From: Nitrososphaeria archaeon
GTDB taxonomy: Archaea; Thermoproteota; Nitrososphaeria; Geothermarchaeales; JDFR-13
Length of the DNA stretch: 64,000 nucleotides
Direction: 5' to 3'
Assembly: GCA_027078545.1 (NCBI GenBank)
Contig: JALWXN010000004.1
Location: 392,737 to 456,736, forward strand
Position 1 is the first letter of the stretch, and the number at the start of each line of letters is the position of its first letter. Of the stretch, positions 4,669-32,213 are shown one piece after another. The notes beneath the pieces are model-generated. The model ran no database searches, was not told the origin of the DNA, and saw only the letters and a program-made list of their open reading frames with translations. Made by a program: the position numbers and the translations under genes.

Positions 4669-5547
4669 ATGATGAGGATAAGTTTCTACTCGGGTGAGAG
4701 CCTAGGCACCCGTGGAATGGCCACCCTCGTGGAGACCCGTGGACTGAGGATATTCATCGATCCAGGTGTGGCCCTGGGGCCTAGGAGGTATGGCCTCCCA
4801 CCCCATAGGCTGGAGCTTGAGGCTAAGGAGGAGCAGTGGAGACGGATAGTGGAGGCCGCCTCGAGGGCCGATGTGGTTGTGGTTACACATTATCATTACG
4901 ACCATCACAACCCGTGGAGCTCTGTGGCGGAGGTATATGGGGATAAGGATGTCTATATCAAGGATTATCAGAACAATATTAATCCCAGCCAGATCAGGAG
5001 GAGTAGGTTCTTCCTCCATAGGCTTGAGGAGGAGGGTGTGGATATCTCCCGTGTAAGGGTGGCGGACAATAGTAGTGTGGAGTATGGAGGGGTTAGGATA
5101 GTCTTCAGCCCACCCTTCTACCACGGCGACTCACCCAAGCTAGGCTATGTGGTGATGGTCCTGGTGGATGATGGTGATAGGAGGCTCCTCTACACCAGTG
5201 ATGTGGAGGGCCCCATGTATAGTGAGCCCCTGAGATACATCCTCTCCACCGAGGCGGATATAGTGGTGCTTGACGGGCCCCCTACATATCTGGCGAGCTA
5301 TGACGAGTCGGTGATTGGGGAGGCCCTACGGAATGTCTCGCTCATCCTTAGGCAGGAGTGGCTAGAGACGCTTATCCTTGAGCACCACTTCCTGAGGGAT
5401 AAGAGGTATGGGGAGTATCTATCGATGATCGAGGGGTATGGAGAGTATGGATACAAGGTTATGTGCTTCGCCGAGTATATGGGGTGGGAGCCCAGGTTTT
5501 TAGAGATGTATCGTGACGAGTTATATAGTGGGGAGGGTGGAGAGTAA
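4669..5547 (+). CDS. UPF0282 metallo-beta-lactamase-fold hydrolase
   Basis: Predicted metal-dependent hydrolase of 292 aa. The N-terminus SGESLGTRGMATLVETRG followed by IDPGVALGPRRYGLPPH is the hallmark of the archaeal UPF0282 family (COG2248). The metal site VVTHYHYDHHNP (HxHxDH) is near residue 75, with further ligand candidates at SPPFYHGD, YTSDVEGP and LEHHF. The biological substrate is unknown. It stands 2 bp ahead of the SMC-like gene, so it heads that operon. A TATA-like element (CTTTATCC) lies about 30 bp upstream in the short divergent spacer. Confidence 0.88.
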   Translation: MMRISFYSGESLGTRGMATLVETRGLRIFIDPGVALGPRRYGLPPHRLELEAKEEQWRRIVEAASRADVVVVTHYHYDHHNPWSSVAEVYGDKDVYIKDYQNNINPSQIRRSRFFLHRLEEEGVDISRVRVADNSSVEYGGVRIVFSPPFYHGDSPKLGYVVMVLVDDGDRRLLYTSDVEGPMYSEPLRYILSTEADIVVLDGPPTYLASYDESVIGEALRNVSLILRQEWLETLILEHHFLRDKRYGEYLSMIEGYGEYGYKVMCFAEYMGWEPRFLEMYRDELYSGEGGE

Positions 5548-5549
5548 CT

Positions 5550-7283
5550 GTGACCTATGTCAAGGAGGTCATCCTAGAGAACTTCATGTCCTATGAATAT
5601 GCCCGTATACCCCTCTCCAGGGGCCTAAACATAATAACTGGGCCCAACGGGGCGGGTAAGTCTACCATACTCCTAGGCATATCTATAGCCATGGGTCAGA
5701 GCCATACGGAGAGGGGTAGGAGGCTCTCAGACCTTATAAGGATAGGTAGGGATGTGGCCAGGGTCTCGATAGTTCTCGACAATAGGGAGGTGGATGGGCG
5801 CCGACCATTCCCGGGGATCAGGTCTGACGAGGTTGTCTTCACCAGGATTATCAGGAGTGATGGGAACTATCTTTATGAGGTTAACTATAGGGCCTCCTCC
5901 AAGGCCGAGGTTAGGTATCTCCTCGGCTCGGTGGGCATCAATCCTGACAATATACTCATCATAATGCATCAGAACATGATCGAGAGCTTCAACTTCATCG
6001 ATAGTAGGGAGAAGGTTAAGCTGTTTGAGGAGGCCCTGGGGATCTCGGGCCTGAGGAGTAGGATTGTGGAGGCTAGGGAACGGCTGGCCAGGATAGCTAG
6101 TGAGGAGGAGGCTGTTAGGAGGCGTTTCCGGGACGTGGAGAGCCTTATGGAGAAGTGGAGGGAGATGTATAGGAGGTGGGAGGAGAAGAGGGGCCTGATC
6201 AATGAGCTGAGCCGTCTAGAGGCTATGTATGCATGGGGCAGGGTCAGGAATATGGAGGCCGAGCTGAACAGCCTGAGGGATCTCGAGAGTAGGCTGAGGG
6301 ACGAGAAGGCAGGTCTCGAGGAGGAGGTCTCGAGGCTTAGGCTCAGCCTCAGGGAGCTGGAGGAGGATCTTAAGCATCTCTACGCCGTGGTTAGGGACTC
6401 CTTCAGGGAGCCCGGTGGGAATCCAGGCCTTATAGACGAGTTGATAGGTAGGATTGATGGGCTGAGGCTTAGGTATGGCGATCTCAGGGCTTCTGAGGCG
6501 GTGAAGACCTATAGGATCGAGGTGTTGGAGAGGGAGCTCCATGAGCTTGGGGAGAGGATTAGGAGGGCTGAGGGGGAGGCGAGGCTACTGAGGATGGAGG
6601 CCTCACGATACCCGGAGATATATCCTGAGAAGCCCCTCTCAGAGATCCTCGGGGAGATAAGGGCGGTGAAGAAGATGTTGGAGAAGTACGGCGATGTAGA
6701 TGAGACTGCCGCTGCCTCCTACGAGTATTACAGGAGGCTCTATGAGGAGTATAGGGAGAGGCTTGAGGAGATTGTTGAGAATAGGGATCGGCTGTATAAG
6801 GAGCTGGAGAGGCGTGTCAAGAGGTGGAGGGAGGAGCTTGAGAAGTACGTCTCACGGGTCTCCGACGAGTTTAACAGGATCCTAGCCAGGTTCGGGGCAA
6901 CCGGCTATGCCAGGCTGGAGGATCCGGAGGATATTGAGACGGCCCGTCTAGAGATATATGTAGGCTATGGAGGGGCCACGCCTACGCTACTCGACGCCTA
7001 TAGGCAGAGTGGTGGTGAGCGTACAGTTGCTGCGATGGCCTTCCTCCTAGCTATGCAGAGGCTCGTCAAGTCTCCCTTCAGGGCTGTCGACGAGTTCGAT
7101 GTCCATATGGATCCTAGGAATAGGGCTAGGGTGATGGAGCTCCTCATGGAGTATATGTCGAGTGTGGGTGGGCAGTACCTAGTCATCACCCCCGGCTATA
7201 TAGGGGACTATGTCCGTGACGCCCACGTCATAGTTGTCCAGAAGGTTGAGGGTAGGTCTGGGGTGGCGCTCTACAGTGAGTAG
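5550..7283 (+). CDS. Compact SMC-like ATPase (Smc5/6-like head, no clear hinge)
   Basis: 577 aa from a GTG start 2 bp after the previous stop. Walker A GPNGAGKS (31-38), Q-loop Gln near 141, signature QSGGER (485-490) and Walker B with FRAVDEFD (510-517) form an SMC/Rad50 ATPase head. The opening LENFMSYEYARIPL and the GRDVARVSIVL stretch resemble Smc5/Smc6 more than Rad50. Between the head halves, 165-440 is charged coiled coil with a break at 285-293 (REPGGNPG). There is no CxxC zinc hook, and no room for a normal globular SMC hinge; canonical SMCs are about 1100-1200 aa. The following genes look like a kleisin and a winged-helix partner. The chromosome role is inferred from family and context. 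Confidence 0.85.
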   Translation: MTYVKEVILENFMSYEYARIPLSRGLNIITGPNGAGKSTILLGISIAMGQSHTERGRRLSDLIRIGRDVARVSIVLDNREVDGRRPFPGIRSDEVVFTRIIRSDGNYLYEVNYRASSKAEVRYLLGSVGINPDNILIIMHQNMIESFNFIDSREKVKLFEEALGISGLRSRIVEARERLARIASEEEAVRRRFRDVESLMEKWREMYRRWEEKRGLINELSRLEAMYAWGRVRNMEAELNSLRDLESRLRDEKAGLEEEVSRLRLSLRELEEDLKHLYAVVRDSFREPGGNPGLIDELIGRIDGLRLRYGDLRASEAVKTYRIEVLERELHELGERIRRAEGEARLLRMEASRYPEIYPEKPLSEILGEIRAVKKMLEKYGDVDETAAASYEYYRRLYEEYRERLEEIVENRDRLYKELERRVKRWREELEKYVSRVSDEFNRILARFGATGYARLEDPEDIETARLEIYVGYGGATPTLLDAYRQSGGERTVAAMAFLLAMQRLVKSPFRAVDEFDVHMDPRNRARVMELLMEYMSSVGGQYLVITPGYIGDYVRDAHVIVVQKVEGRSGVALYSE

Positions 7284-7977
7284 GGAGGAGATATATGGCA
7301 GGATAGTGGATCTAGCGGCTAGGGTGGCGCGTGGGGAGCTCGACCCGCTGGAGGTTGAGATATCCACCCTCCTGGCGAGGATTGAGGAGGTGGATATTGA
7401 GAGGCTCCCAGTAGAGGTTTTTAGGCAGGATGTGGAGGCTATACATGGCCTCGCCCTTATCCTAGCTATGCAGAAGGATAGGATAAAGGCGTCGCTGGAG
7501 GGTCTGAGCCTCGACGCTCTGCTGGTTAAGACTATCATCCTCTCCCTGGGGGTGGAGGAGCTGGCGGACCTGTTGAGGGCTATACATAGGCCTGTCGCCG
7601 AGGTCTCGGTGATGACTGAGGAGTATCTTGCGGAGGCCCTGGCCTACTTCAGATCCGTGGTGAGGCCTGGCGGTCTGGTTGGTGGGGAGCCTGTGGAGGT
7701 TGAGCCGGAGGTCTTCCCCGAGGAGGATATTAGGCGTGACATGGAGGAGATGTGGAGGCGCCTCCTGGAGGAGTATGGTGAGGAGTGGATATCCTATGAC
7801 GAGGTGGTTGGGGGCGATGTCTATAGGGCCTACCTGGTGAGCCACCTGGTTACCGAGGGTTATATGGATATGAGGATGGACCGTGTGGCTGGAGAGGCAT
7901 ATTTACGTCCCCTTAGGAGGCGTCGGGAGCTCCGTAACCCGGCCTCTCTACCGGTGGTGGTTAGGCGTGGAGGGTGA
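7276..7977 (+). CDS. ScpA-like kleisin, putative partner of the SMC-like ATPase
   Basis: 233 aa from GTG 7276, which overlaps the SMC stop by 8 bp and follows a GGGGTGG ribosome-binding site; a longer TTG start at 7234 is possible. The N-terminal segment GELDPLEVEISTLLARIEE plus a helix ending LALILAMQKDRIKAS matches the pattern of the ScpA N-terminal domain, which grips the SMC neck. A central acidic linker (VEPEVFPEEDIRRDMEEMW) is followed by a C-terminal helix-turn-helix-like region ending before RPLRRRRELR, as in kleisins that bind the SMC head. Family placement rests on motif reading and gene order; remote homology searching would settle it. Confidence 0.65.
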   Translation: MSREEIYGRIVDLAARVARGELDPLEVEISTLLARIEEVDIERLPVEVFRQDVEAIHGLALILAMQKDRIKASLEGLSLDALLVKTIILSLGVEELADLLRAIHRPVAEVSVMTEEYLAEALAYFRSVVRPGGLVGGEPVEVEPEVFPEEDIRRDMEEMWRRLLEEYGEEWISYDEVVGGDVYRAYLVSHLVTEGYMDMRMDRVAGEAYLRPLRRRRELRNPASLPVVVRRGG

Positions 7978-8533
7978 TAGGAAGCTTCTTAGGGCTGCAT
8001 ATCTACTCCTCGTGAGGCGTAGGAGGTATCCGGGGGTTAGGGAGTGGGAGCTTGAGAAGTATCTGGGTAGGAATTATAGGGAGGTCCTGGATAGGCTTGG
8101 GGAGGAGCTGTCTAGGTTTGGCCTCGAGGTTAGGGAGGTCGTCCTGAAGGAGGGTGGTAGGGAGGTTAGACACTTCGTCGTAGTACCCGCTAGGACGGCT
8201 GTCCATATGGAGCTTGGTGTACCACCCTTCAGGGTTGACGAGGCGGCTGTACTTGCACTGGCTATATCCATGATACTTGCGAGTAGTGGTGGCCGGGTCA
8301 AGAGGTCCGAGGTCGTGGAGCTGGCTAAGACGAAGCTCCCCGAGTATAGGGTTGAGCGTGCCCTGAACAAGTTTGTCAGGCTTGGGTATCTGAAGGAGGA
8401 GGATGACGACCTGCTGCTAGGCCTGAGGACGTATCTCGAGATGGATCTCGATAGGTTGGCGGCTATCCTCGCCGGGAGGGCCGAAGCCTCTCGGCTAGGC
8501 GGCGACGCTTCAGCTCGAGAAGGATCTGGGTGA
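7967..8533 (+). CDS. Tandem winged-helix protein, possible KITE (ScpB/Nse-like) subunit
   Basis: 188 aa from GTG 7967, an 11-bp overlap with the kleisin-like gene, behind a GGTGGTGG ribosome-binding site. The N-terminal half (YPGVREWELEKYL... FGLEVREVVL) and the C-terminal half (GGRVKRSEVVELAKTKLPE... LVRLGYL-type) each look like a winged helix. The middle strand pair around RHFVVVPAR recalls MAGE/Nse3-type KITE proteins. Known SMC complexes pair a kleisin with such KITE subunits, so the third gene in the row fits that role. An alternative is an unrelated DNA-binding regulator. Its last 71 bp overlap the convergent helicase gene. Confidence 0.55.
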   Translation: MEGDRKLLRAAYLLLVRRRRYPGVREWELEKYLGRNYREVLDRLGEELSRFGLEVREVVLKEGGREVRHFVVVPARTAVHMELGVPPFRVDEAAVLALAISMILASSGGRVKRSEVVELAKTKLPEYRVERALNKFVRLGYLKEEDDDLLLGLRTYLEMDLDRLAAILAGRAEASRLGGDASAREGSG

Positions 8534-11276
8534 GCCTATCCCCTATCCTAGGCTCCTTCCTCAGGGCCTCCTCGATGTCGCTCAGTGTTAGTCCCCCCAC
8601 TACATAGGCGTATATGCCTGGCTTGCCATACCTCCTGTATAGCCTGGAGGTCCTCCTGAGCTCCCTAAGTATCCTCCCACCCGTCCTCCCCATCCTAGCC
8701 ATCTCGAGCTCCCTCATCGTCTCGGAGGGTCTCTCCCTGGTTATGCCTACCTCGTCTGAGCCGCAGACTGGGCAGTGGGGCTGCTCGGGGAGCTCCAACA
8801 CCCTGGTCTCAACTATGTATTCGCCGCAGGTGAGGCATGCAATCGTTACATATGTCGCTAGGGCCCTGGCCCTGGTGGCTATCACCTCTAGTAGCTGGTA
8901 CCTCGGCTTTCTAGGCCCCTCCATGGGGATGTCGCTATACCTGACATACTCCGTCGTCATCCTGGAGAGGTGTCCGGGGTAGGCTACTAGCCTAATCCCT
9001 CCACTGGCTATACCGCGGAGTATCTTCCCAGCCCCTCCCAGGTCGTGGTCCCTCTTCAGGCTCTCCCTCAGGGCCTCTAGGTATGGTGGCCTACCCCTGT
9101 TGTGCTCGATCATGGTGTCGATGAGTTTCTGGGTTATCTCGGCCTCACGTGTTATGAGGCCCATCCTCTTCGCGACGTTTAGGAATCTCCACCTGAATAT
9201 ACTGGTTCTGGGGGCGGCCTCCCTCAGAGCCCTCTCTATGTCCCCCGGGTTCCTGAGTATGTCTATCACGTGCTCCGGCTCTATGAAGGGGCTCTCAAGT
9301 ATTATCCTATACTGGTCTGATGAGTGTCTAGCCTGTATAGAGTATCTCTCCTCAAGCTCGTGTACCATGTAGGTCTCCAGCGTCCTGTTAGTGTTTGTCC
9401 CTCCCAGTATGTTGACGACCAGCCTCGGCCCGTCGGACTCGATGGTTATAACGTCGTCGCTGGGTATCTCGTAGCCGCTGCCCAGCTCCTCGGCGAATAT
9501 CTCCAGTGCATGGCTCACCGTCTCAGGGTCTATTGAGTATTCCCTGGATATCGTATCAACAGCCTCCCTATAGCCAGCCTCTCTATACACTTCTCTGAAG
9601 AGCCTTAGTAGCCTCCCCACCTCCTGGGCTATCTCGTAGGGTACTGGTATCTCCTCCCCTATCCAGTCTGGCACTGCCCCTATAGGGTCGTCCTCGGGCT
9701 TGACGAAGACCTTCTCCCCATATATCTGTAGGATCCGCCACGGCCTCCCAGCCAGGATTATCTTTGTACCCTCCTCCCCAGCCACGGCTAGGAACTCGTC
9801 GTCTAGGACGCCTACTATCTTTCCCGATGTGTCGTCGACGACGGGGTACTGCTTGATATCGGGTATCATGGATAGGTTCTCGAAGTAGTATCGGTAGAGC
9901 CTCTTATGATCCCCTATCTTCAGGGCGTCTCCATCGACCCTCCATATCCTCGTCGCCTCGGCTATATACTCCAGGGTCTCCACCAGCTCCTCTATTGATA
10001 GGTCTCTATAGTAGACTATGTTTCTCAGGAGCTGGTGTAGCATGGCTATGCTCAGCCTCTTCTCACTTATGAGGATCCCCGCCACCTCGTGGACTAGGAC
10101 GTCTAGGGGCTTGTCTAGGAAGTATATGTCCTCCACCCTCCTGGCGTAGGCGTGGCTCCTGATGGAGAATGATTCTAGGGCGTCGTAGGGGTCTATAGCC
10201 ACTATCTCGCCTCTACTCACCTCCTCTATCCAGTGTCCAGCCCTGCCTATCCTCTGTATGAGCTTCGATACCTGTCGGGGTGAGCCGTACTGGATCACGT
10301 ATTTTATGTCGCCTATGTCTATCCCCAGCTCCAGGGAGGATGTCGCTACTATCGCCTCTAGCACCCCTTTCTTGTAGAGCTCCTCCACCCTTATCCTATA
10401 CTCCGTACCTATGGAGCTGTGGTGCACAGCTGTCTTCATCTCTTGGGAGTATAGGAGTAGCCTGTTCCCCAGTATCTCGGCCATGGGCCTGGTGTTGGTG
10501 AATATGAGGGTCTTACCCACCTCCCTGATCCTCCCGACTATGTGTCTAACCCTTGCCGCCACTGCTGGGTATGTATAGAGCTTCTCGGCCAGCTCTACAT
10601 CCCTCCTGGTGGGCTGTGGATATGATATCCCGACCTCGATCCTCTTCTCCAGGTCGGCCCTGACATAGATACCCTCGCCGTCCAGGCCTGTTATGTACTT
10701 CAGGGCCTCCTCGGGATTACCTATGGTTGCTGATAGGCCTATTACCTGTAGATCCCCCTTCCTGAGCCTCCTAAGCCTCTCGAGGGCTATGGAGAGCTGT
10801 ACCCCACGCTTGCTGGGTATGAGCTCGTGTAGCTCGTCGACGACTACCCATCTCGCCCTGGCTAGGTATTGGGAGAAGGTCTTCGTGTTTAGGAGGTATG
10901 TGAAGGTCTCGGGCGTGGTGACGAGTATGTCGGGCGGGTTTAGGCCCTGCCTCCTCCTCTCCCTCTGGGGGGTGTCGCTATGCCTGACGGATATTGAGAG
11001 GTCTAGGCGTGAGGCCCACCATATAAGCCTATCAATTATGTCTCTGTTGAGGCTCTTCAGCGGGGTTATGTAGACTACCTGTATAGGCTCTCCAGGCTCC
11101 CTAACCAGCCTGTCGAGTATCGGTATGAATGCGGCCTCGGTCTTCCCACTCCCGGTTGGGGCTAGTATTAACGTGTCCCTACCGCCTAGGATATGTGGGA
11201 GCGCCAGTCTCTGGGGCTCGGTAAGCCTCTCGAAACCCCTCTCCCTTATCAGCCTCTCTATCCTAGGGTCTAGCAT
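8463..11276 (-). CDS. lhr: Lhr-type superfamily 2 helicase
   Basis: 937 aa ATP-dependent helicase. Walker A APTGSGKT (39-46), motif II DELH (147-150), motif III SATIGNPEE (182 on), and a second RecA lobe with ATSSLELGIDIGDI and QRIGRAGHW. A long C-terminal region follows, typical of Lhr (large helicase-related) proteins, with a zinc-ribbon-like pair CLTCGEY... CPVCGSDEVG near residue 840. Lhr proteins unwind DNA and RNA-DNA hybrids in repair. The start overlaps the DUF211 gene by 14 bp, so the two are co-transcribed. Confidence 0.93.
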   Translation of the reverse strand: MLDPRIERLIRERGFERLTEPQRLALPHILGGRDTLILAPTGSGKTEAAFIPILDRLVREPGEPIQVVYITPLKSLNRDIIDRLIWWASRLDLSISVRHSDTPQRERRRQGLNPPDILVTTPETFTYLLNTKTFSQYLARARWVVVDELHELIPSKRGVQLSIALERLRRLRKGDLQVIGLSATIGNPEEALKYITGLDGEGIYVRADLEKRIEVGISYPQPTRRDVELAEKLYTYPAVAARVRHIVGRIREVGKTLIFTNTRPMAEILGNRLLLYSQEMKTAVHHSSIGTEYRIRVEELYKKGVLEAIVATSSLELGIDIGDIKYVIQYGSPRQVSKLIQRIGRAGHWIEEVSRGEIVAIDPYDALESFSIRSHAYARRVEDIYFLDKPLDVLVHEVAGILISEKRLSIAMLHQLLRNIVYYRDLSIEELVETLEYIAEATRIWRVDGDALKIGDHKRLYRYYFENLSMIPDIKQYPVVDDTSGKIVGVLDDEFLAVAGEEGTKIILAGRPWRILQIYGEKVFVKPEDDPIGAVPDWIGEEIPVPYEIAQEVGRLLRLFREVYREAGYREAVDTISREYSIDPETVSHALEIFAEELGSGYEIPSDDVITIESDGPRLVVNILGGTNTNRTLETYMVHELEERYSIQARHSSDQYRIILESPFIEPEHVIDILRNPGDIERALREAAPRTSIFRWRFLNVAKRMGLITREAEITQKLIDTMIEHNRGRPPYLEALRESLKRDHDLGGAGKILRGIASGGIRLVAYPGHLSRMTTEYVRYSDIPMEGPRKPRYQLLEVIATRARALATYVTIACLTCGEYIVETRVLELPEQPHCPVCGSDEVGITRERPSETMRELEMARMGRTGGRILRELRRTSRLYRRYGKPGIYAYVVGGLTLSDIEEALRKEPRIGDRLTQILLELKRRRLAERLRPSRRG

Positions 11277-28582: not shown

Positions 28583-28628
28583 TGTTACTTAAAGCAATCA
28601 TAATTATTTAGGATTTTATCCTCCGCGA

Positions 28629-28786
28629 TTTAATATTAAACGATAACCTGAAACTAATTATAATTAGTTGAGTACTATTTTGAGATACCCCTGTCAAAAT
28701 ACAGCTTCTCAATATATACATCTCTGACTAAAGTAAATGTCACATATTATGTTGGTCAAAGATAGTGATTTTAAGTGGTGATTACC
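28629..28786 (+). promoter_or_regulatory. Control region of the peptide operon: two palindromes and TATA box
   Basis: AT-rich leader. TTTAATATTAAA (28629-28640) is a perfect 12-bp palindrome. AACTAATTATAATTAGTT (28652-28669) is a perfect 18-bp palindrome, of operator size. CATATTAT (28743-28750) is a plausible TATA box giving a start near 28773 and a short leader with GTGGTGAT (28775-28782) 4 nt before the ATG. A TATATACA run near 28714 is an alternative promoter. The palindromes are seen; regulator binding is inferred. Confidence 0.5.
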
Positions 28787-28906
28787 ATGAAGTATAATCC
28801 ACCCGAAATAACATCAATGGACTTACTGTTAGCGCCATTATGCCTCTGTAATTGCAACTGTGGACTGCTGTCAGGTTCGGGAGCTGGAGGAGGGAGTGCT
28901 AAGTAG
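28787..28906 (+). CDS. Predicted RiPP precursor peptide, 39 aa, CxCxCxC core
   Basis: Small gene with ATG at 28787 behind GTGGTGAT, stop TAG 28904-28906. The first 18 residues form a leader-like stretch ending LLLAP. Four cysteines alternate as CLCNCNCG (residues 19-26), followed by a flexible tail with GSGAGGGS. Four closely spaced Cys plus a Gly/Ser-rich end just upstream of an ABC exporter, a radical SAM/SPASM enzyme and a PqqD-like protein is the layout of a sactipeptide- or ranthipeptide-type precursor, where Cys sulfur is joined to a carbon of another residue. No homologue is recalled. A chance frame is possible but the start signal, position and composition argue against it. Confidence 0.75.
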   Translation: MKYNPPEITSMDLLLAPLCLCNCNCGLLSGSGAGGGSAK

Positions 28907-28922
28907 CCGCTGGTGGCTAAGC

Positions 28923-29831
28923 GTGCACATAAGAGTCATCAGCATCACAAAGACATACGGTGCTAGTGTCAGAGCCGTAGAATCCCTATCCTTTTTTATA
29001 AACTCAGGAGAATCTGTAGCGCTAATAGGACCCAATGGGGCAGGAAAAACGACAACTATACATATCATTCTTGGGCTATTGAAGCCTGATGAAGGAGAAG
29101 TTTATATAGACGGAGTCAACATGATGGATGAAAAGGAATCATCGGAAATACGTTCTAGAATAGGTTTTGCACCACAGAACATCGCGTTGGATTTTTTCCT
29201 TACTGTTGAGGATAACATCGAACTGTACCTGAAGTTAAATGGACTATCAAGAGCGAATAGGCGAGAAAGAACAAAAAGGATACTTGAGTTAATGGGTTTA
29301 TATGAATATAGGAATAGGAGGGTGGAGACGCTTTCAGGAGGATTAGCCAGACGTGTTCACATAGCGAGGGCACTGGCTCTCGACCCTGAATTGATTATTT
29401 TGGATGAGCCTACTGTTGGATTGGACCCTGTTTCAAGGAGACTTTTCTGGGAAGCTCTCAAGGGATACATTAAGGAGTCGGGTGCAACACTCCTGTGGAG
29501 TAGCCATTATTTGGAGGAGATCGAAAGAAATGCCGATCGAGTGATTCTACTAAATAGAGGCAGAAAGTTGATGGACGCTCCTCCTGGAGAGATTGTATCC
29601 AAGTTTTCGAGACCTGTACTCGAGCTAGAAATACCTAATGAAGAGGTTTTAAAGTCACTTACATCGAGATTCGGCGGTAACTATGTAAATGGAAGGCTCA
29701 TCATTGACGATGTCGACTGGGATGATCTGCCCAAGGTTATAGCAAGCCTGAGTAAGCTTGGTGCTGAGGTACGGCTGTTGAGGTGGGGTAGTAAGTCACT
29801 TGAGGAGGTGTATCTCGAGGTGATGTCATGA
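28923..29831 (+). CDS. ABC transporter ATPase of the peptide operon
   Basis: 302 aa from GTG 28923 (SVHIRVISITKTYG), which has CTGGTGG 8 nt upstream; an upstream GTG at 28896 overlaps the peptide gene. Walker A GPNGAGKTTT, Q-loop FAPQN, signature LSGGLARRVHIARAL, Walker B LIILDEPTVGLD and switch His in SSHYLEE are all intact. It belongs to the ABC-2/CcmA-type exporter ATPases. It would power the adjacent permease, exporting the matured peptide or giving self-protection. Codons are AT-rich (AGA, AAA, TTA), unlike the flanking genes. Confidence 0.92.
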   Translation: MHIRVISITKTYGASVRAVESLSFFINSGESVALIGPNGAGKTTTIHIILGLLKPDEGEVYIDGVNMMDEKESSEIRSRIGFAPQNIALDFFLTVEDNIELYLKLNGLSRANRRERTKRILELMGLYEYRNRRVETLSGGLARRVHIARALALDPELIILDEPTVGLDPVSRRLFWEALKGYIKESGATLLWSSHYLEEIERNADRVILLNRGRKLMDAPPGEIVSKFSRPVLELEIPNEEVLKSLTSRFGGNYVNGRLIIDDVDWDDLPKVIASLSKLGAEVRLLRWGSKSLEEVYLEVMS

Positions 29832-30580
29832 GTATTGTTATAACCCTTATCGAGAGGGAGTTCAAAATACTGTTTAGGAGTAAGTTGCTTATGCTTCTCA
29901 TGATAGCTCAGCCAGTAATTTTGATATTCTTGTTCGTCCTGTCTATGGGTAATGTAGTCGGTGAGATAACTTATCGGGGTATCACTGTTAGCTATGTGGA
30001 GTTCATGGTTCCAAGCGTGGTTATTCTTACCCTTATGTTTGTTACTATGATGGTGAGCCAATCCGTTTTCAACGAGAAGTTTTCCAACATGCTGATAATC
30101 CTGTTATCTACGAGGATGACAGCTAGGGACTACATCGTAAGTAAATTGATAACCAACACTTTTATATCATTAACACAGGCGATGCTTATGCTAACAGCTT
30201 ATCTATTGATTATAGGAGGAACCAACATAATATCAATTATATATGCTCTTCCACCAATAATAATTGCATCACTGACACTTTCGGGGATATATCTCTCTCT
30301 TCTAGGGTATCTCAAAACAATTTCAGCTTTCTCGAGTGCCGTAAACATACTTACATTGATAATGATATATTCTGCACCTCTTTTCTACCCTTTGGAGGCG
30401 ATGCCTTTCCCTCTAAATTTTGCTAGTAATGTTAATCCTTTAACATATATTGTTGAATCAACAAGGATAGGTTATTTATTAAAGAGTTTTGATGTATCAA
30501 TATGGATATCCTCGATAATTTGTATAATCTTCATATTACTATCCATTCATACAATGAAAAATATGCTTACGGAGGTTTAA
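29828..30580 (+). CDS. ABC-2 type permease of the peptide operon
   Basis: 250 aa with six predicted membrane helices, ATG overlapping the ATPase stop by 4 bp (ATGA). The cytoplasmic N-terminus ITLIEREFKILFRSKLL and the loop NEKFSNMLIILLSTRMTARDYI match the ABC-2 (DrrB/NodJ-like) family, as does the late APLFYPLEAMPFPLNFASNVNPL. Pairs with the preceding ATPase as a half-size exporter. Substrate inferred from context to be the modified peptide. Confidence 0.9.
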   Translation: MSIVITLIEREFKILFRSKLLMLLMIAQPVILIFLFVLSMGNVVGEITYRGITVSYVEFMVPSVVILTLMFVTMMVSQSVFNEKFSNMLIILLSTRMTARDYIVSKLITNTFISLTQAMLMLTAYLLIIGGTNIISIIYALPPIIIASLTLSGIYLSLLGYLKTISAFSSAVNILTLIMIYSAPLFYPLEAMPFPLNFASNVNPLTYIVESTRIGYLLKSFDVSIWISSIICIIFILLSIHTMKNMLTEV

Positions 30581-30582
30581 AA

Positions 30583-31977
30583 ATGATAGAAAGAAGAATG
30601 ATAATTCAGGATACTCCACTTGAAAAATTAAGGGAGAACTTGAAAAGATTAATATGCATCAAATTTAAAAATCTCTATGTGCTTTTTGATCCAGAGACAG
30701 TCAGTTGGATCCCCATTAGTGACGATGATATCGCAATGCTTAGAGAATTTTATTGGGGTGGCTATCTAAGAGAGAAAAAAGGATTTCATCTGATTGGTAG
30801 GATGATATCGTCCTTAATTGGAGTGTCTTATAGAATAATTTATAATAAATTACTTCCCTACCCATCAGTGTATTATTTGGAAATCACAAAGGGTTGCAAC
30901 CTTAGATGTGTTTACTGTTATATAGGTTCTGCGCCTGAATTGCTCAGTTATAAGGGAAAGATGAAAGTTGAGAACTGGCTTGAACTGATAAATCAAATAA
31001 ATACCCTTGGGGGCAGAGAAGTAATTTTTACTGGAGGCGAACCATTACTAAAGTATGATGACATTTTATCTATCGGAAAGTATGCAAAGGAACATGGTCT
31101 TATTACATCTCTCATTACCAATGGTGTTTTGCTGAATTCTAAGAGAGTTGAGGAGCTCTCTAGGATTATAGATAACATCACTGTTAGCCTGGATAGTCAT
31201 ATAGGTTCAGTTAATGCGGTTACAAGAGGTTATAGAGAGACACATAGAATAATATATTACATTAAGAGCCTCCTCGAGAAGGGAGTAAATATTTATGTAA
31301 ATTGTGTTGTAACAAGAAGTAACGTAAATAGCTTGACTAGTTTCTTGGATCATTTACAAAAGATCGGAGTGACCCCTGATAAAATAAAATTTATTCTCAT
31401 GGCACCAGCAGGAAGGGCTTTAACATTGGATCATTTCTCAGTCAACCCAATGGATTTAGTCAAAGAGTCATTTTTATATAACCTTAGGATGGGAGTCATT
31501 CCTAATCACAGTCGTACGGCTTTTAATAAATTTTCAAGAAAGTACATGTGTGGGGCTTCCGTATCTGAATTATATATAGATTGTGATGGAAACGTTTATC
31601 CATGTAGAATGTTGGTGACAAAGTCTGGACATCTTGGAAATGTCCTTAAAAACTCATTGAAGGACATACTTGACAGTTCCAATAGGTATAATTTTGTTGA
31701 TTCGATATCCAAACCCAATTTAAAGGTATGTAAAGATTGTATTTATAGAAATGTATGTGCTGGGGGGTGCAGAGGCAATGTCATAGGTTCCCAAGGTAAT
31801 TTGACGGATCCTGATCCCATTAATTGCATTATCGTTAAAAATACTTTTCCTCTGTATATGATAGTCGAATCCTACGGCTTAGAGGTTCTTAGAAATCTGA
31901 ATGATAGAAATGTATTTCGACAAGTGGAGGTTGTTAGTTCATGGTTGGAAGAAGATTTAGACCTAAAGAAAGTGTGA
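30583..31977 (+). CDS. Radical SAM/SPASM peptide maturase
   Basis: 464 aa from ATG 30583, 6 nt after GGAGGT. The radical SAM cluster is CNLRCVYC (C105, C109, C112), with GGEPLL at 151-156. The SPASM domain is complete: C323, C334, GNVYPC ending at C341, then CKDCIYRNVCAGGC (C383, C386, C392, C396; the Cx2Cx5Cx3C signature) and C415, enough for two auxiliary 4Fe-4S clusters. Such enzymes (AlbA, AnSME and PqqE relatives) make thioether or other crosslinks in peptides. Residues 25-60 (LYVLFDPETVSWIPISDDD) look somewhat like a PqqD/RRE fold, so a second recognition domain may be built in. The likely substrate is the 39-aa peptide. Confidence 0.92.
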   Translation: MIERRMIIQDTPLEKLRENLKRLICIKFKNLYVLFDPETVSWIPISDDDIAMLREFYWGGYLREKKGFHLIGRMISSLIGVSYRIIYNKLLPYPSVYYLEITKGCNLRCVYCYIGSAPELLSYKGKMKVENWLELINQINTLGGREVIFTGGEPLLKYDDILSIGKYAKEHGLITSLITNGVLLNSKRVEELSRIIDNITVSLDSHIGSVNAVTRGYRETHRIIYYIKSLLEKGVNIYVNCVVTRSNVNSLTSFLDHLQKIGVTPDKIKFILMAPAGRALTLDHFSVNPMDLVKESFLYNLRMGVIPNHSRTAFNKFSRKYMCGASVSELYIDCDGNVYPCRMLVTKSGHLGNVLKNSLKDILDSSNRYNFVDSISKPNLKVCKDCIYRNVCAGGCRGNVIGSQGNLTDPDPINCIIVKNTFPLYMIVESYGLEVLRNLNDRNVFRQVEVVSSWLEEDLDLKKV

Positions 31978-32213
31978 TTATAAATAGGTCTGAGTTCGAT
32001 GACAGGTTTTTAATCTATGATCCAAGAAGTGGGAAAATGTTTTTCACTAATGAAATCGGTGTCTTAATTTGGTATTTGCTCAGATGTTATGAAGTGGATA
32101 GAATTGTAGAAGCTGTTTCCATACTTACAGGAGAGAAGATGGAGACTATTAATAAAGATCTAAATAACTTTTTAGAAAGACTTAAGAAACTAGGGTTAGT
32201 TGAAATAGAGTAA
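31941..32213 (+). CDS. PqqD-like RiPP recognition protein
   Basis: 90 aa, ATG 31941 with GGAGGT at 31926-31931, overlapping the maturase gene by 37 bp. The pattern RPKESVIINRSEFDDRFLIY, then TNEIGVLIWYLL and NFLERLKKLGLVEIE at the end, is the PqqD winged-helix fold. PqqD proteins (RRE domains) bind the precursor leader and deliver it to the radical SAM enzyme. Last gene of the five-gene unit; sequence returns to GC-rich about 70 bp later. Confidence 0.88.
   Translation: MVGRRFRPKESVIINRSEFDDRFLIYDPRSGKMFFTNEIGVLIWYLLRCYEVDRIVEAVSILTGEKMETINKDLNNFLERLKKLGLVEIE

What the first reader, a model, noticed from the sequence alone, without database searches (positions are those of the whole stretch)
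5550..8533. Three-gene compact SMC complex: SMC-like ATPase, ScpA-like kleisin, KITE-like protein
Seen: overlapping genes for an SMC-type ATPase with Smc5/6-like N-terminus, a protein with ScpA-like ends, and a tandem winged-helix protein. Known: SMC-ScpAB, MukBEF and Smc5/6 all combine SMC, kleisin and KITE subunits. Inference: this is a minimal archaeal SMC machine. Sulfolobales coalescin is described without this clear operon, so a stable kleisin/KITE partnership here would be of interest for Smc5/6 origins.
Basis: partly seen in the sequence, partly recalled or inferred. Interest (0 to 1): 0.75.

Follow-up and report, generated by a model that had tools for sequence, protein, structure and literature searches.

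The report
Archaeal counterpart of the Smc5/6 complex
Three overlapping genes in this archaeal genome encode a small, hingeless SMC motor with a kleisin and a tandem winged-helix partner whose nearest known relatives are the core subunits of the eukaryotic Smc5/6 DNA-repair complex, and the same trio recurs across many archaea beside an ordinary SMC-ScpAB set.

Summary
Genes 5550-7283, 7276-7977 and 7967-8533 (+) overlap and encode a 577-aa SMC ATPase, a kleisin and a KITE protein. The trio recurs in 77 of 80 homologous loci (Thermoproteota, Hadarchaeota, others). In two exceptions the kleisin-KITE pair lies elsewhere in the genome; the third locus is cut by a contig end. The kleisin and KITE are not ScpA and ScpB. 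Kleisin members hit Pfam Nse4_C (53/74, best 1.5e-7), and the profile retrieves human and yeast Nse4. The KITE model's best folds are Nse1 and Nse3 (3.3e-7), far above ScpB. The ATPase C-head profile ranks Smc5 first, whereas a canonical archaeal SMC profile ranks Smc5/6 far below Smc1-4. Canonical archaeal ScpA hits ScpA and Rad21/Rec8, never Nse4. The host also carries a separate SMC-ScpA-ScpB operon, so it has two SMC systems. The compact SMC has no detectable hinge, no CxxC zinc hook, and short arms. I interpret it as a homodimeric Smc5/6-type DNA clamp or translocase. An "SMC5/6-related" archaeal ATPase was reported before; I found no report of its kleisin and KITE partners. Complex assembly, cellular function and presence in Asgard archaea are untested.

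The parts
5550..7283 (+). Compact SMC ATPase, 577 aa: N-head, short coiled-coil arm without hinge, C-head; GTG start
   Evidence: ORF; Pfam SMC_N 2.9e-33; C-head profile best match Smc5; no SMC_hinge in 20 of 20 members; no cysteine at all
5640..5666 (+). Walker A GPNGAGKST
   Evidence: invariant in the family
7005..7025 (+). ABC signature QSGGERT
   Evidence: the family alignment
7077..7112 (+). Walker B/D-loop FRAVDEFDVHMD, resembling Smc6 (SPFRCLDEFDVYMD) and Smc5 (PFRVVDEINQGMD)
7176..7193 (+). YLVITP motif; the 'TP' is shared with Smc5 and Smc6 and absent in the canonical SMC, Smc1 and Smc2 sequences compared
   Evidence: alignment
7276..7977 (+). Kleisin, Nse4-like, 233 aa; GTG start overlapping the SMC end by 8 nt; C-terminal winged helix
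   Evidence: Nse4 and EID3 3.6e-5 to 1.8e-4; Nse4_C in 53/74; model; top fold yeast Nse4
7967..8533 (+). KITE protein, tandem winged helix, Nse1/Nse3-like, 188 aa; GTG start overlapping the kleisin end by 11 nt
   Evidence: MAGE 14/76, best 2e-5; Nse1 10/76; mean pLDDT 83; Nse1 3.3e-7, Nse3 2.8e-4
4669..5547 (+). Metallo-beta-lactamase-fold protein (PRK04286-like) 2 nt upstream; possible operon member in this lineage only, not a core part
   Evidence: directly upstream in six near relatives
8463..11276 (-). Lhr-type DNA helicase, convergent, overlapping the KITE 3' end by 71 nt; recurrent neighbour, not a core part
   Evidence: near the SMC in 40 fetched loci; DEAD, DEAD_assoc, WH_Lhr

Best explanation
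It is an operon for a compact archaeal SMC-kleisin-KITE complex homologous to the core of eukaryotic Smc5/6 (Smc5/Smc6, Nse4, Nse1/Nse3). Shown: the three genes are overlapping and conserved as a set; each subunit is closest to the Smc5/6-type counterpart; the ATPase has intact Walker A, signature and Walker B motifs; it has short arms, no detectable hinge and no CxxC zinc hook; and a separate canonical SMC-ScpAB operon is present. Inferred: two identical SMC heads are bridged by one kleisin, its N-terminal helical domain on one SMC neck and its C-terminal winged helix on the other head's cap, with a homodimer of the single KITE bound to the kleisin middle. ATP binding joins the heads and closes a clamp in which KITE and heads hold DNA; hydrolysis releases or shifts it. 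The short arms suggest small-step DNA clamping, segment capture or junction/supercoil handling rather than large loop extrusion. The recurrent Lhr helicase neighbour, and topoisomerase IB in one lineage, suggest a role in DNA repair or topology.
For: Operon conservation. Kleisin: Nse4_C in 53/74 members, best 1.5e-7; PDB profile hits human EID3/Nse4 3.6e-5 and yeast Nse4 6.7e-5, against ScpA 0.09; the predicted structure's top matches are Nse4, Scc1 and Brn1. KITE: Foldseek Nse1 3.3e-7 and 4.9e-7, Nse3 2.8e-4, ScpB only rank 20 at 0.035; MAGE and Nse1 are the two commonest Pfam matches; profile comparison with archaeal ScpB gives probability 9.9. ATPase C-head: Smc5 125/116 bits, prokaryotic Smc up to 94, Smc6 90/81, Smc1 57, Smc3 53, Smc2 43, Smc4 34; control with canonical archaeal SMC: prokaryotic Smc up to 222, Smc1-4 107-140, Smc5 68/53, Smc6 43. 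Control kleisin: archaeal ScpA gives ScpA 6/7 and Rad21_Rec8 4/7, no Nse4_C. Trees: compact + Smc5 + Smc6 together with UFBoot 96 (80-aa region) and 89 (208 columns); monophyly of the sampled eukaryotic SMCs (Smc5/6 with Smc1/2) rejected, AU p = 0.0008. Two SMC systems in the host.
Against: The window's own kleisin has no Pfam hit and its own KITE hits are sub-threshold; the links rest on family profiles and folds. The N-head does not prefer Smc5/6 over Smc2. A placement of the compact family outside (Smc5/6 + Smc1/2 + canonical) is not rejected (AU p = 0.32), and only 80-190 aa of each eukaryotic sequence was available. The kleisin model has pTM 0.39. No physical interaction, stoichiometry or function was tested. 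The coiled coil was judged from sequence only.
Confidence: 0.82

Rival explanations
1. A shortened canonical SMC-ScpAB (condensin-type) complex that lost its hinge and part of its arms.
For: Same overall subunit plan; the kleisin C-terminal winged helix is detectably related to archaeal ScpA (hhalign probability 93.5, E 2.3e-7).
Against: The host has a separate SMC (1139 aa) with ScpA-like and ScpB genes in a row. Controls separate the two systems at every subunit (vs 83, 55 vs 66, 88). No ScpA or ScpB among the Pfam families listed for the compact kleisin and KITE families.
Confidence: 0.06
2. Same architecture, but the Smc5/6 resemblance is convergence or retained ancestral sequence: the compact family is sister to all SMC proteins rather than specific kin of Smc5/6.
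For: This topology is not rejected by the AU test (p = 0.32); the N-head scores equally with Smc2 and Smc6.
Against: Three independent subunits (SMC, kleisin, KITE) all favour the Smc5/6 counterpart; UFBoot 89-96 for grouping with Smc5/6.
Confidence: 0.12
3. A coalescin/ASRP-type protein with two unrelated neighbours.
For: Short SMC-like protein in archaea; weak ASRP model match, 80 bits.
Against: Far below the ASRP cut-off of 300 bits, no ASRP over cut-off in the host, no CxxC in any of the 81 family sequences scanned; ASRP sequences branch with Rad50; neighbours are conserved and kleisin/KITE-like.
Confidence: 0.02
4. An anti-plasmid or anti-phage SMC system (Wadjet or Lamassu type).
For: The Wadjet KITE (JetB) is the third fold match of the KITE model; some archaeal relatives could have been recruited for defence.
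Against: The window's and L015's kleisin and KITE have no PADLOC match and the ATPase matches only through the common ATPase fold; the most frequent neighbours are Lhr helicase, metallo-beta-lactamase, RNA polymerase and topoisomerase IB genes, not JetD or effector genes; single copy wherever found and near-universal within some lineages; no close viral or plasmid relatives.
Confidence: 0.05

Closest known systems
Eukaryotic Smc5/6 core (Smc5, Smc6, Nse4, Nse1, Nse3)
   Same: SMC C-head profile ranks Smc5 first; Nse4_C kleisin matches; KITE fold matches Nse1 and Nse3; shared ITP motif and PFR..DEFDV-type Walker B; KITE rather than HAWK partner
   Different: One SMC and one KITE gene instead of two each; no detectable hinge; short arms; no RING on the KITE; no Nse2, Nse5 or Nse6 seen in the operon; archaeal
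Archaeal 'SMC5/6-related' SMC (Yoshinaga and Inagaki, cited in PMC9389158)
   Same: Archaeal SMC ATPases grouping with eukaryotic SMC5/6
   Different: That work, as reported in PMC9389158, covers the ATPase; I could not check that it is this family, and kleisin/KITE partners are not mentioned in the parts I read
Prokaryotic SMC-ScpAB
   Same: SMC + kleisin + KITE plan; distant homology of the kleisin C-terminal winged helix
   Different: Long arms with hinge; ScpA/ScpB families not matched; encoded separately in the same host genome
Coalescin / ASRP (ClsN, Sph)
   Same: Short archaeal SMC-related ATPase
   Different: Has a zinc hook and no consistent flanking genes (PMC9389158); different family by score and tree
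Wadjet JetABC
   Same: KITE fold similarity (8dk1_E)
   Different: No JetA/JetB match for kleisin or KITE in the proteins scanned; no JetD-like recurrent neighbour; not a defence neighbourhood

Membership tests
SMC-kleisin-KITE complexes (general) | ABC head with Walker A at the N-terminus, signature and Walker B at the C-terminus | tested here: met
SMC-kleisin-KITE complexes (general) | Kleisin with C-terminal winged helix | tested here: met
SMC-kleisin-KITE complexes (general) | Tandem winged-helix KITE partner | tested here: met
SMC-kleisin-KITE complexes (general) | Antiparallel coiled-coil arm | tested here: inconclusive
   Sequence pattern and coiled-coil-type Pfam matches only; the SMC structure was not predicted
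SMC-kleisin-KITE complexes (general) | Hinge dimerisation domain | tested here: not met
   SMC_hinge not among the families matched in 20 members, whereas the host's canonical SMC has a hit
SMC-kleisin-KITE complexes (general) | Kleisin contacts at SMC neck and cap; KITE bound to kleisin | not testable with these tools
   No multimer prediction available
Smc5/6 complex | SMC of the Smc5/6 type | tested here: met
   C-head profile ranking with reversed control; UFBoot 96 and 89; N-head neutral
Smc5/6 complex | Nse4-type kleisin | tested here: met
   control
Smc5/6 complex | Nse1/Nse3-type KITE fold | tested here: met
   ScpB control
Smc5/6 complex | Two distinct SMC and two distinct KITE subunits; RING on Nse1 | tested here: not met
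   One compact SMC and one kleisin-KITE pair in the host; KITE is 188 aa with no RING hit
Smc5/6 complex | Nse2 SUMO ligase, Nse5, Nse6 | not tested
   Not searched for genome-wide; not in the operon
SMC-ScpAB | ScpA-family kleisin and ScpB-family KITE | tested here: not met
   ScpA and ScpB absent from the listed family matches; hhalign vs ScpB probability 9.9
ASRP / coalescin | Score above NCBIfam ASRP cut-off; zinc hook | tested here: not met
   80 bits vs 300; no CxxC
Wadjet | JetA, JetB and JetD partners | tested here: not met
   No PADLOC match for kleisin or KITE; no such recurrent neighbour
Archaeal 'SMC5/6-related' SMC of Yoshinaga and Inagaki | Identity with the sequences in that study | not testable with these tools
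   The 2021 paper is not held; supplements not available

The most novel reading that the evidence does not exclude
This is the surviving pre-duplication form of Smc5/6: a homodimeric, hingeless SMC with one Nse4-like kleisin and one KITE ancestral to both Nse1 and Nse3. The archaeal lineage leading to eukaryotes already had two SMC systems, one giving cohesin and condensin (SMC1-4, Rad21/CAP-H), the other giving Smc5/6-Nse1/3/4.
Probability: 0.5. Interest if true: 0.92.

Novelty: new variant of a known kind. Interest (0 to 1): 0.8.

Why it matters
Archaeal SMC complexes have been described as mostly lacking a KITE subunit, with no smc, scpA or scpB detected in Crenarchaeota (PMC7055376), and PMC5228436 leaves open whether Smc5/6 branched separately from cohesin and condensin. 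A widespread archaeal operon whose three products all match the Smc5/6 core, next to a canonical SMC-ScpAB set whose kleisin matches cohesin/condensin kleisins, suggests that the Smc5/6 versus Smc1-4 split predates eukaryotes and was already a split between whole complexes. It also offers a small, presumably thermostable, single-SMC model of Smc5/6, and a test of whether an SMC complex can work without a hinge.

Tried and rejected
ScpA/ScpB assignment: rejected by controls. Coalescin/ASRP: rejected by score and missing zinc hook. Wadjet/Lamassu defence system: PADLOC and neighbourhood do not support it. Viral or plasmid origin: viral contigs gave only weak ATPase-fold matches, plasmids gave no full-length match. 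N-head PDB ranking was not discriminating. The short signature tree (80 aa) and the 208-column tree give the grouping but cannot exclude a deeper branching of the compact family. Literature searches combining Nse4 with archaeal and Asgard, or Bathyarchaeota with SMC5, found nothing; subscription papers and preprints are not held.
Full report
Observation. Three overlapping genes lie on the + strand at 5550-7283, 7276-7977 and 7967-8533. The first encodes a 577-aa SMC-type ATPase with N-terminal Walker A and C-terminal signature and Walker B (Pfam SMC_N 2.9e-33). The other two were effectively nameless by single-sequence search: no Pfam hit for the second, and only sub-threshold Nse1 (0.014) and MAGE (0.09) hits for the third.

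Conservation. A scan of one genome per species found 368 relatives of the ATPase and returned the best 80, mostly labelled as Thermoproteota lineages (Geothermarchaeota, Thermofilales, Bathyarchaeota, Methanomethylicota, Caldarchaeum, Nitrososphaeria), some Hadesarchaea and one labelled Methanosarcinales. In these 80 loci the kleisin is directly downstream in 78 and the KITE in 77, usually with overlapping or abutting frames. L073 is cut by the contig end; the genomes of L024 and L068 carry an adjacent kleisin-KITE pair elsewhere. The kleisin profile finds the gene in 124 of 299 Thermoproteota genomes; the KITE profile finds it in 18 of 22 genomes of L067's (Hadesarchaea) phylum and 24 of 197 of L068's phylum. 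It is essentially single-copy.

Kleisin. Of 74 family members, 53 match Pfam Nse4_C (best 1.5e-7); neither ScpA nor Rad21 appears among the 25 families listed. The family profile against PDB sequences gives human EID3/Nse4 3.6e-5 and yeast Nse4 6.7e-5, with ScpA at 0.09. The predicted structure (mean pLDDT 79, pTM 0.39) has yeast Nse4 as its best fold match, followed mainly by other kleisins: cohesin Scc1, condensin Brn1 and the ScpA C-domain. Control: the ScpA-like kleisins encoded next to canonical SMCs in these archaea match ScpA (6/7), Rad21_Rec8 (4/7) and CNDH2, never Nse4_C. The two archaeal kleisins are still distant homologues.

KITE. The model (mean pLDDT 83) is a tandem winged helix. 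Its best PDB folds are Nse1 (3.3e-7, 4.9e-7), Wadjet JetB (1.5e-4) and Nse3 (2.8e-4); ScpB is rank 20 at 0.035. MAGE (the Nse3 domain; 14/76, best 2e-5) and Nse1 (10/76) are its commonest Pfam matches. Archaeal ScpB proteins match ScpB in 9/9 and never MAGE or Nse1, and profile comparison of the KITE with ScpB gives a probability of only 9.9.

ATPase. The C-terminal head profile ranks Smc5 first (human 125 bits, yeast 116), then prokaryotic Smc (up to 94) and Smc6 (90/81), with Smc1, Smc3, Smc2 and Smc4 at 57, 53, 43 and 34. The same test on the canonical archaeal SMC reverses the eukaryotic order: Smc1-4 at 107-140, Smc5 at 68/53, Smc6 at 43. The N-head is neutral. The compact family shares with Smc5 and Smc6 an ITP motif and PFR..DE..(V)..MD-type Walker B residues. 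In ML trees the compact family groups with Smc5 and Smc6 (UFBoot 96 on about 80 residues; aLRT 92/UFBoot 89 on 208 columns). Monophyly of the sampled eukaryotic SMCs (Smc5/6 with Smc1/2) is rejected (AU p = 0.0008), but a topology with the compact family outside the other SMCs is not (p = 0.32).

Architecture. No SMC_hinge is detected in 20 members scanned although the host's canonical SMC shows one. The window's ATPase has no cysteine and no family member has CxxC, so there is no zinc hook. From the sequence, the arms are roughly 110-130 residues per strand in the window protein, somewhat longer in Bathyarchaeota; a conserved tip motif lies around residues 305-325.

Second SMC system. About 340 kb away on the same contig, the host has a 1139-aa SMC (NCBIfam SMC 343 bits), a 214-aa ScpA-like gene and a ScpB gene in a row. 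ASRP/coalescin is absent over cut-off.

Neighbours. An Lhr-type helicase lies close by, mostly convergent just downstream, in 40 of the fetched loci and in the window. A eukaryotic-type topoisomerase IB is divergent and next to the SMC in 9 Methanomethylicota-type loci. A metallo-beta-lactamase-fold gene precedes the trio in the window's close relatives. No defence signature was found, and there are no close viral or plasmid relatives.

Mechanism (inferred). Two copies of the ATPase engage through their heads on ATP binding. The kleisin bridges neck and cap asymmetrically as in other SMC-kleisin complexes. A dimer of the single KITE sits on the kleisin and, as Nse1/Nse3 do in Smc5/6, helps clamp DNA above the heads. 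With short arms and no hinge, I expect local DNA clamping or small-step movement at damaged, entangled or supercoiled DNA rather than long-range looping. None of this was tested.

Literature. An 'SMC5/6-related' group of archaeal SMC ATPases has been reported (cited in PMC9389158); I could not check whether it is this family. Archaeal complexes were argued to lack KITE subunits, with smc, scpA and scpB not detected in Crenarchaeota (PMC7055376). I found no paper describing an archaeal Nse4-like or Nse1/Nse3-like operon, with the caveat that subscription papers and preprints are not held.

Verdict. The trio is real, conserved and not ScpAB. It is best filed as an archaeal, single-SMC, single-KITE counterpart of the Smc5/6 core: homologous by three subunit tests, but not a Smc5/6 complex in the strict sense because it lacks the paired SMC and KITE subunits and the hinge.

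Noticed in passing
L093:2397-6457 (host contig C4:56396-60456) and ScpB at C4:60464-60844: The host carries a separate canonical SMC, ScpA-like and ScpB cluster; the ScpA-like protein has no Pfam hit, so such pairs may be missed by standard searches.
   Followed up: yes
L012:4182-5720 (-), and eight further Methanomethylicota-type loci: A eukaryotic-type DNA topoisomerase IB (all three domains) is divergently adjacent to the compact SMC operon.
   Followed up: partly
window 8463-11276 (-), and 40 fetched loci: Lhr-type helicase gene close to the operon, mostly convergent with and often abutting or overlapping the KITE 3' end; a recurrent neighbour over large evolutionary distances.
   Followed up: partly
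L015:5116-5802 (-), and 39 further loci: An uncharacterised conserved protein of about 230 aa (no Pfam or NCBIfam hit), most often divergent just upstream of the SMC; identity unknown.
   Followed up: partly
window 28600-32000: Low-GC stretch (0.35-0.45 against about 0.54) with ABC-transporter ATPase and permease-like genes and a radical-SAM/SPASM-like gene; possibly horizontally acquired.
   Followed up: no
window 4669-5547 (+): Metallo-beta-lactamase-fold protein 2 nt upstream of the SMC; shares the operon position only in close relatives.
   Followed up: partly
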